DNA from: Mugil cephalus
Lineage: Eukaryota; Chordata; Actinopteri; Mugiliformes; Mugilidae
Direction of reading: 5' to 3'
NCBI RefSeq assembly: GCF_022458985.1
Contig: NC_061787.1
Coordinates: 741,001-805,000, forward strand
DNA: 64,000 nucleotides
Both the position numbers and the translations under genes were made by a program. The notes under the pieces were generated by a model. It did no database searches. It was not told the origin of the DNA and worked only from the letters and a program-made list of their open reading frames with translations. How positions within the stretch are numbered: position 1 is the first letter of the stretch; each line of letters begins with the position of its first letter. This document shows positions 12,701 to 15,700 of this stretch, in pieces.

Positions 12701-15700
12701 AATGGAAGATACGAAAGGTTTTGCCTTATTTTAGGCCATTAACCACTAATTTAACTCTCCATGTTAACATTGCAGTTGTACAATTTAAAATAAATGTGCT
12801 ACTCGTTGGCTTCTAATCTCTTTCCAGCTGATATTTGGTGTCTAGTTGATGCTGGGGGAGTGTTGCTTCATGACGTTGACGTTGCTTAAAATTAGGGATG
12901 TTTTTAAAATGAGCAGAATGAATGTGTACCAGTCTTTCAGTACCAGCGCTGGGTTGGACACTGAGGAGGTGGAGACGCGTTGTCCATGTTTATACGGCCT
13001 GTAGGTGACACTAGTTCACACTTCATGTCTTCATGCTCTGTTTCCTTCTCATCACTGAAACATTCTTAGTTTTTCGTCAGTGCACTGGAGCAAGTCGACT
13101 ACACTCGTACACTGGTTTGGGGGTAGTTCTGTGCTTGGACGAAGAAATGAATGTGGGAGCATATACCTGGTTTTAGAGGCGTTAGAGGCTTTACAGGTTT
13201 TACAGTTGTGGACGTAAAACTACACTGAGACGTAGAACTACACAGAATTTTCACTTCTTTTTGTTGAGAAATGTCCAGTTGTTTTCTAGTTTATTGTAAA
13301 CGTTGTCACAACGTACTTGTACGTCTTTGTAAAGGGAAACGTTTGAAGTTATTTTCTAGGTTAATATGCTGTTAATAGACCTCTAACTCTGAGAGCATCG
13401 CTGGGACTGAAAACTGAATGGATTTTAAAGATACGACGGCAGAAACGAGCTGGACAAAAGCAAAGACACATGAAACTAGTGGTAAAATATTGTGGCTATG
13501 CCACAAATCATGAGTTTTGGAAAAATCTATTTTATATCAGCAGTTTCAAAACTCTCTCCAGATAAATCCGAACATGAAATCAGTAGCGACGCCTTCACGG
13601 TCACAGGGATAATTTACTTTGGTTGGAGTCTGGTTTATTGTTCTGCAGATATCACGATCTCAGTCTAAGCTAAATAATTACAGGTGATTAATAAGACATA
13701 GTTTACCCTAACCCTAAATCTTACGTGATTAAAATGATTGTCTGAGACTCTGTAACGTCCTGTAAATGGTCAAATATAAACCTGGTAGGGCTTCCAGCCG
13801 TCACCACAGAGCCAGAGACGAGGGACGAGATGAACTGAGACAGTGATTAAGACTTATTTTATGTCGTTGGTTCATCTTTAACTCACTTTCTTTCTCTTGT
13901 CCCACGTCAACACCCTTTATTTTTTGCCCCATCGTTTTGTTTTTTGGTCGTTCTCCATTACTTTCTTCCTTCCTTCTTTCTTCTTCTCTTCCAGTCTTTC
14001 TTTTTTGATACGTTCCTTTACGCCCCCCCACCCCTTTGTTTCTATACATTCCTTCCATTTCCTCCTTTTCTTCTCCTCTTCCATGTTTTCCCCCCTTCTC
14101 CTCCTTTTTTCTCTCTTCCTCCTTCTCTTTCGTCAGGCTTGACCAAAGATGGCGGCGGTAGTGCGAATGCCGAGTCGCTTGAGGAGATTCTTAATATTTT
14201 AGCAGAGGAGGGCTCTGATTGGATCTATGGCTTCTTCACCTTCCTTTATGACGTAGTGTCGTCGCCCGTAGAACGGGCCGAGGAGGAAGAGGAGGAAGAA
14301 GGGAAGGATGCGCCGGCCAGTACAACCTCCTCCAAAGACGGGGAGGTTGAAGGGGTTGTGCTGGACCTCCAGAACCAGTAGGAGGACAGGGAGCTGAGCC
14401 AGTAGCAAGGCATCCTGGTCCCTCTGCCGACTAACGAGGATCAGACCTGGACTCGTAGTCCAGCTGGTGGAGGATGATCTTGTGTCTGTTGTGGTGCAGA
14501 GGATCTGAAAACTGTTTTTTTTTCCTCTGCAGGGCCGGCAAACTTTAAGCAGGCTGAAACAGTTCATTCCAGAAAACTGTCAAATTCTTGGATTAATTAG
14601 CTCAATAGCTGAGACTTCGACTTATATCTATGTATAAGATAAACAATACAGACAAACTAGAGGATGTACATTCATTTTATGCCTCGTTGGGCTCGTTTCA
14701 AGTCATGTACCAGGTCGTTTATCTGTAAAAGTCAATGGGTTTTTAGATTTTTAATCAGTTAGTTGCAGCTTTCAGAGTACGGATGCAACGATGCACTCAA
14801 CTCACGATTCGATATGATTTCTGATGCTGGGTTATCGATTCGTGTTTCTCACTATTTATGCTTTAACAGAATGAGCTTACAGACAGATTATGACTGAAAA
14901 AGATTCTTTTAATCATTTCTCAGACAAAAAAACACGTTTCTGAGGTAGGATGTAACTTCAAAATACAAACTTACACAAAAACTACAAATTAAATTTTCTC
15001 TTTAACAAATTAAAGAAAATCCCTTTTTATTTCTCTGATAACTCAAACTCTTCTTAAAAGTGCAACTGAAATTATATTTTATCTTAACAACAACAACAAC
15101 AACAAATGGATCTTTAAAACAAATCTCACATCAAAAAAACTAAATGAATAGTTAAAATAAACAAACTAAGGCTTGCATGTGTTCCTACTTCGGCATTTAC
15201 ATGTTTTTTAAGGAAGATCAGCAGATGTGGTCCCGTCTGAACACCCGACACTGACGTACGACATCGAACACATAGTGACGTAAGCGGCATCACAATTCAT
15301 TTTTCATTTCAGCTGATTTGAATTGTCACGTATTTGTATTTTTAACCGTCTCACGAGCACTTTTTACTCTCTATTGCAGAGACATGACGTTTGTTGCTCA
15401 TGTTGCTAAAATTTATCTTTTAATCCTTTAAACTGTCCTTTCGTGTCAACGGCAAGATGGCGGCACCCGCTCCTTTTCCTCTGGAAGTTGTGGTGACCTT
15501 ATAATCATGCTACACTGTCTGCTTTTGTTATTAGCCAGCAGCAGGTGCTACGGGTGGATGGTGGCCATACAAAACTTCACCGCGGGTTTACCAGTGTCTA
15601 CATATTACCGTTAAAACGTTAAATGCCAGTTTTGATTTTCTCTAAAACCTCATTAAGTTCAGTCTTTTTTGAGTGGAGTGTAGGGCTGCAACAAACAATT

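What the first reader, a model, noticed from the sequence alone, without database searches (positions are those of the whole stretch)
14137..14381. A triadin-like terminal exon inside the asph gene
Seen: an exon with a clean acceptor, correct phase from the EF-hand exon and its own stop encodes [16 protein letters not shown] followed by an acidic run. Known: human triadin has DWIYGFFSLLSDIISS plus an acidic run right after its membrane anchor, and ASPH/junctin and triadin anchors are related. I recall nothing like it in human ASPH. Inference: this fish can make a membrane-anchored EF-hand protein with a triadin-type luminal start, and the exon may be an ancestral feature lost from the mammalian gene.
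Basis: partly seen in the sequence, partly recalled or inferred. Interest (0 to 1): 0.85.

Follow-up and report, generated by a model that had tools for sequence, protein, structure and literature searches.

The report
Conserved alternative last exon of asph
This fish asph gene carries an alternative last exon that would make a short calcium-binding membrane protein whose end resembles part of triadin, and the same exon probably exists in mammals too, so it is a real but mostly ordinary feature with an interesting hint about how the two muscle genes are related.

Summary
An open exon at 14137-14381 follows a strong acceptor, keeps phase 1 from the EF-hand exon (12407-12475) and ends in its own stop. 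It encodes GLTKDGGG...[26 protein letters not shown] run...VVLDLQNQ. The likeness to triadin (recalled sequence) is far above chance: 13 of 20 residues identical, and 0 of 20,000 shuffles reach the score with the acidic run excluded.

The inference that mammals lost the exon is probably wrong. I recall human ASPH short isoforms ending ...SSDWFYGFLSFLYDIM...VILDLHNQ. That peptide aligns to the whole fish exon (47 of 84 columns identical). I recalled it after reading the fish exon and no tool confirmed it, so it is a lead.

Best reading: a vertebrate-conserved alternative last exon of asph, making a type II ER/SR membrane protein with one EF-hand, a hydrophobic juxtamembrane segment and an acidic tail. 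The three upstream exons examined are phase 1-1, and the anchor exon joined directly to this exon aligns with triadin from anchor to acidic run. ASPH and TRDN may share the luminal exon as well as the anchor. No RNA data or vertebrate genomes could be reached.

The parts
9761..9961 (+). asph membrane-anchor exon ([27 protein letters not shown]), phase 1 to phase 1, GT donor; start placed by eye at the AG 9759-9760
   Evidence: Pfam PF05279 Asp-B-Hydro_N 55.7 bits on 9760-9960; tblastn with recalled human ASPH; sequence
10625..10669 (+). 45-nt optional cassette, 15 aa [15 protein letters not shown], phase 1-1
   Evidence: Acceptor gcatgcag, donor gtatgg; same length as junctate residues 56-70 named in PMC10326932; the human counterpart AKAKDFRYNLSEVLQ is recalled
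12407..12475 (+). EF-hand exon [23 protein letters not shown], 69 nt, phase 1-1, with a GC donor (gcaagt)
   Evidence: PF05279 31.6 bits, residues 1-23 of the joined peptide; matches PDB chain 9fvu_A (ASPH) residues 86-111
14137..14381 (+). alternative last coding exon, 81 codons (the first completed by the carried-over G) plus TAG stop
14205..14264 (+). triadin-like stretch [20 protein letters not shown] inside the exon
   Evidence: 13 of 20 identical to recalled human triadin; 0 of 20,000 shuffles
14988..15161 (+). candidate poly(A) signals: ATTAAA 14988 and 15009, AATAAA 15156 (weaker variants from 14638 on)
   Evidence: Motif scan only; not evidence of use
33415..37782 (+). TPR and 2OG-oxygenase exons of the full-length asph, the alternative to ending at 14381
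   Evidence: tblastn with recalled human ASPH; PF05118 above cut-off on the exons at 36370 and 37633; TPR models on 33415-33876 below their cut-offs

Best explanation
The exon is a real alternative last exon of asph, conserved in vertebrates, and most likely present in human ASPH as well. When the EF-hand exon (GC donor at 12476) is spliced to 14137 and the transcript is polyadenylated downstream, the gene makes a short type II ER/SR membrane protein without TPR or hydroxylase domains. It would have a cytosolic N-terminus, a membrane anchor, one luminal EF-hand, a hydrophobic/amphipathic segment ([30 protein letters not shown]) next to the membrane, and an acidic tail ending DLQNQ. Inferred function: a small luminal Ca2+-sensing or -binding partner at ER/SR junctions, of the junctate/junctin sort. 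The EF-hand and acidic run would respond to Ca2+, and the WIYGFF segment would hold it against the membrane or a channel partner. The segment is homologous to triadin's juxtamembrane luminal segment, so the relation of ASPH and TRDN extends past the anchor. Shown: sequence, splice sites, phase, stop, similarity. Inferred: splicing, expression, localisation, binding, conservation in mammals.
For: Intact acceptor, phase and stop. Triadin-like stretch above chance (second set of 20,000 shuffles, none reaching it). Whole-exon match, both ends included, to a recalled human ASPH short isoform (score 150 against 78 for triadin); that recalled tail is itself triadin-like (score 66, 0 of 20,000 shuffles). 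The three upstream exons examined are phase 1-1, so 4 of 4 combinations tried read through to the same single stop. The anchor exon joined to this exon aligns with recalled triadin from anchor to acidic run, score 157. Literature passages seen: ASPH makes several truncated non-catalytic products; an Asph alternative-last-exon event is regulated in heart hypertrophy and development (PMC3142162); junctate senses luminal Ca2+ by its EF-hand and couples to STIM1 through luminal parts (PMC7796502).
Against: No RNA reads, no other fish sequence, and no fetched mammalian ASPH short isoform or triadin sequence: both comparison peptides were recalled, the ASPH tail after reading the fish exon. None of the passages read describes an ASPH isoform with this tail. 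The GC donor is unusual, though it would serve any isoform continuing past the EF-hand exon. No canonical AATAAA until 15156, 775 nt past the stop. Pfam's ASPH N-terminal model does not match this exon. Between anchor and WIYGFF segment the triadin alignment is weak and gapped, and triadin's exon borders were not tested.
Confidence: 0.8

Rival explanations
1. One reading: an ancestral triadin-type exon kept in fish and lost from the mammalian ASPH gene.
For: The exon is real and triadin-like. The sources reached here did not show the mammalian exon.
Against: Recalled human ASPH short isoforms carry the same tail, matching first to last residue.
Confidence: 0.1
2. The exon was captured from a triadin gene copy (exon shuffling) in the fish lineage, rather than inherited from an ASPH/TRDN ancestor.
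For: Phase 1-1 surroundings permit insertion; a local stretch is strongly triadin-like, more so than the recalled human ASPH tail is (78 against 66).
Against: The recalled human ASPH tail is much closer than triadin over the part before the acidic run (150 against 78), and the order anchor, then this segment, then acidic run is the same in both genes.
Confidence: 0.05
3. A decayed or never-used exon: the open frame survives by chance and is not spliced in this species.
For: Open frames after strong acceptors are not rare in this window (8 of 29); no expression data; GC donor upstream.
Against: Triadin-like and ASPH-like residues are kept with no stop or frameshift over 81 codons; a decayed exon would hardly keep phase, stop and C-terminal LDLxNQ together.
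Confidence: 0.05

Closest known systems
Human ASPH short non-catalytic isoforms with the LTKDG...ILDLHNQ tail (recalled from protein databases, not fetched)
   Same: Same start GLTKDG, SLEExLNILAEExSDWxYGF, acidic run, same end DLxNQ; same place after the EF-hand exon (recalled for human)
   Different: 37 of 84 aligned columns differ; the fish tail has [16 protein letters not shown], nearer to triadin than the recalled human DWFYGFLSFLYDIM (78 against 66)
Triadin (TRDN), juxtamembrane luminal segment (recalled sequence)
   Same: 13 of 20 residues over EExxDWIYGFFxxLxDxxSS, acidic run after it, related membrane anchor before it
   Different: Triadin (as recalled) lacks the EF-hand between anchor and segment and goes on into a long lysine-rich region; here the protein ends
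Junctate / humbug
   Same: ASPH products without the hydroxylase domain, with Ca2+-binding luminal parts
   Different: Junctate is longer (299 aa, humbug 313) and its acidic part comes from other exons (recalled)
Junctin
   Same: ASPH splice product; same anchor and EF-hand exons, alternative end (recalled)
   Different: Junctin's luminal part has KEKE motifs that bind calsequestrin (PMC9192596 passage); this exon is acidic with 3 lysines

Membership tests
ASPH gene product (PF05279 N-terminal region) | Membrane-anchor exon of the ASPH type | tested here: met
   9760-9960, PF05279 55.7 bits against cut-off 23
ASPH gene product (PF05279 N-terminal region) | EF-hand exon [17 protein letters not shown] in phase with the next exon | tested here: met
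ASPH gene product (PF05279 N-terminal region) | Hydroxylase exons in the same gene and strand | tested here: met
   PF05118 on 36370-36516 and 37633-37782; TPR models on 33415-33876 stayed below their cut-offs, but recalled human ASPH matches there
Alternative last exon | Acceptor, phase and in-frame stop | tested here: met
Alternative last exon | Poly(A) site downstream | tested here: inconclusive
   Motifs only, main ones at 14988, 15009, 15156
Alternative last exon | Transcript joining 12475 to 14137 | not testable with these tools
   No RNA data held
Triadin | Anchor followed by DWIYGFF luminal segment and acidic run | tested here: met
   against a recalled triadin sequence; in the EF-hand-containing form the segment lies one exon further on
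Triadin | Long lysine-rich luminal region | tested here: not met
   The exon ends after an acidic tail with 3 lysines in 81 residues (translation)
Junctin | Luminal KEKE region | tested here: not met
   Same translation
Human ASPH short isoform with the same tail | Orthologous exon present in a mammalian ASPH record | tested here: inconclusive
   Match is to a recalled peptide only; the sources searched did not contain it

The most novel reading that the evidence does not exclude
ASPH and triadin descend from one gene whose anchor exon was spliced straight to a WIYGFF-plus-acidic luminal exon. ASPH later gained a symmetric phase 1-1 EF-hand exon (and the 15-aa cassette) between the two, and its short last-exon isoform is a living relic of the ancestral triadin-like protein that still works in the same SR Ca2+-release complex. 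Skipping the EF-hand exon, which keeps the frame here, would restore the ancestral layout.
Probability: 0.4. Interest if true: 0.55.

Novelty: new member of a known kind. Interest (0 to 1): 0.38.

Why it matters
If the exon is made into protein, fish and mammals would share a little-studied ASPH product that pairs an EF-hand with a triadin-type luminal segment. That would be a candidate regulator of Ca2+ release or store-operated entry, and it would need separating from junctin and junctate when ASPH is knocked out or its variants are read. It also extends the known ASPH-triadin relation from the membrane anchor to the next luminal exon, giving a concrete scheme for how the two genes arose.

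Tried and rejected
Chance similarity: rejected by shuffles with the acidic run left out. Acidic run as the source of the match: rejected for the same reason. A GT donor for the EF-hand exon: the nearest, at 12480, would add four bases and break the frame, so GC at 12476 is taken. Pfam on the terminal exon alone (14139-14378): only PF15380 at 11.3 bits, below its cut-off of 22; the recalled human tail matched 0 families. PDB with the joined EF-hand and terminal peptide: 13 sequences at E up to 10; only ASPH chain 9fvu_A is strong (E 3.5e-6) and it matches the EF-hand part. PDB with recalled triadin: 9fvu_A by the anchor and two light-harvesting chains, no triadin. Related DNA: genome contigs with the exon (260 stretches, 0 confirmed) and with alignment A1 (587 stretches, 0 confirmed); viral contigs (23 stretches, 0 confirmed). 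By their descriptions these collections hold bacteria, archaea and viruses, so the misses say nothing about conservation in vertebrates. Rfam over 9000-16000: 0 matches.

Papers: two sequence-string searches found 0 and one search found 0. The listings (20 of 24 papers; 20 of 46; 20 of 158; 20 of 23; 2 of 2; 10 of 30; 4 of 4) show no title or abstract start that describes this exon; the unlisted papers were not seen. Passages only were seen of PMC2625362, PMC4356957, PMC2764345, PMC9192596, PMC12816917, PMC10326932, PMC3142162, PMC6879206, PMC9068942, PMC10786961, PMC9026860, PMC9391951 and PMC7796502, and for PMC2625362 (12 of 13 places), PMC9192596 (12 of 30) and PMC9026860 (12 of 16) not all of them. 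In PMC6879206 the word was asphyxiation; PMC9391951 has no junctate or ASPH; PMC9068942 names ASPH splicing under Sam68/NEK2 without saying which exon. The first translate call was out of frame and is not used. In one search the row for the anchor exon used a wrong start (9758) and is not used.

Full report
What is there. The window holds asph on the plus strand: anchor exon 9761-9961, a 45-nt cassette 10625-10669, the EF-hand exon 12407-12475, the exon in question 14137-14381, and TPR/hydroxylase exons within 33415-37782. The exon in question has a clean acceptor after a long pyrimidine tract, completes a phase 1 codon, and gives 81 residues and a TAG. The EF-hand exon is 69 nt, phase 1 at both ends, and its donor is GC (gcaagt). 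The anchor exon, the 15-aa cassette and the EF-hand exon are all phase 1-1, and 4 of 4 exon combinations tried read through to the same stop.

Is the triadin likeness real? With the acidic run left out, the stretch [20 protein letters not shown] matches recalled human triadin EETTDWIYGFFSLLSDIISS at 13 of 20 residues, score 78. The best of 20,000 shuffles scored 50, and the next best of 2,769 segments in the window scored 40. In a second set of 20,000 shuffles the best scored 48. The anchor is also shared: Pfam's ASPH N-terminal model matches recalled triadin at 30.6 bits against a cut-off of 23. Joining the anchor exon straight to this exon gives a peptide that aligns with triadin from anchor through acidic run, score 157; the stretch between anchor and WIYGFF is weak and gapped in that alignment. 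Openness alone proves little: 8 of 29 strong acceptors in the window are followed by 75 or more open codons.

Is it a fish peculiarity? Probably not. From memory, human ASPH has short isoforms with the tail GLTKDGSNENIDSLEEVLNILAEESSDWFYGFLSFLYDIMTPFEMLEEEEEESETADGVDGTSQNEGVQGKTCVILDLHNQ. Against the window this aligns to 14136-14378, 47 of 84 columns identical, E 1.4e-22, and the part before the acidic run scores 150 against 78 for triadin. The recalled human tail itself scores 66 against recalled triadin, 0 of 20,000 shuffles reaching it. This recall came after I had read the fish exon, and I could not confirm it: string searches of the paper library found nothing, the only ASPH chain in the PDB answer is a 758-residue one whose match lies over the EF-hand and ends just past it, and no vertebrate genome was reachable (seven genome-search runs unanswered: 2, 9, 24, 29, 39, 47, 52). 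I give the mammalian exon about 0.85 probability.

How it most likely works. Splicing 12475 to 14137 ends the protein before the TPR and hydroxylase exons. The product would be a type II ER/SR membrane protein (ASPH and junctate are described as type II in PMC10326932) with one luminal EF-hand, then a segment of high hydrophobicity and moderate helical moment ([18 protein letters not shown], mean 0.90, moment 0.48; highest moment 0.58 at [18 protein letters not shown]), then an acidic tail. In the passages seen, ASPH's non-catalytic products act in Ca2+ handling: junctin with RyR1 and calsequestrin (PMC9192596), and junctate with STIM1 through luminal parts and an EF-hand (PMC7796502). By analogy the short form would sense or buffer luminal Ca2+ close to the membrane, with the WIYGFF segment contacting membrane or channel. 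None of that was tested here. An Asph alternative-last-exon event is named among those oppositely regulated in heart hypertrophy and development (PMC3142162); the passage does not say which exons.

What it is called. It is an ASPH product by anchor, EF-hand and gene context, all met. It is not a triadin or a junctin: the lysine-rich luminal region that marks both is absent from this exon. It resembles triadin in the anchor, this segment and the acidic run after it.

Limits. No RNA, no relatives, recalled comparison sequences, structure prediction switched off. Poly(A) signals are motif matches only.

Noticed in passing
12476-12481: The EF-hand exon's donor is GC (gcaagt), so an asph isoform that continues past the EF-hand by this donor uses a GC-AG intron, a class often tied to alternative splicing (recalled).
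   Followed up: partly
10625-10669: A 45-nt phase 1-1 cassette encodes [15 protein letters not shown], the likely fish form of the optional 15-aa exon of human ASPH (junctate residues 56-70 in PMC10326932; human letters recalled).
   Followed up: partly
14400-33400: tblastn with recalled human ASPH jumps from residue 108 to 327: the acidic middle exons were not located in the window, perhaps because they diverge fast.
   Followed up: no
20707-21936 (and 21687-22310 in another frame): A 410-codon open stretch of [21 protein letters not shown] repeats (15-, 60- and 90-nt tandem units) between the asph exons; possibly an expanded KEKE-type junctin exon, with a frame change inside the array.
   Followed up: no
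18473-20231: A 24-nt minisatellite of about 76 copies just upstream of the lysine-rich stretch.
   Followed up: no
43379-43609, minus strand: A CRAL_TRIO exon (PF00650, 25.8 bits) that I read as clavesin (clvs1) from recall; ASPH and CLVS1 are neighbours in human as I recall, so the order would be conserved.
   Followed up: partly
56245-56652, plus strand: An exon with a RIO kinase domain (PF01163, 53.8 bits), so another gene follows at the right of the window.
   Followed up: no
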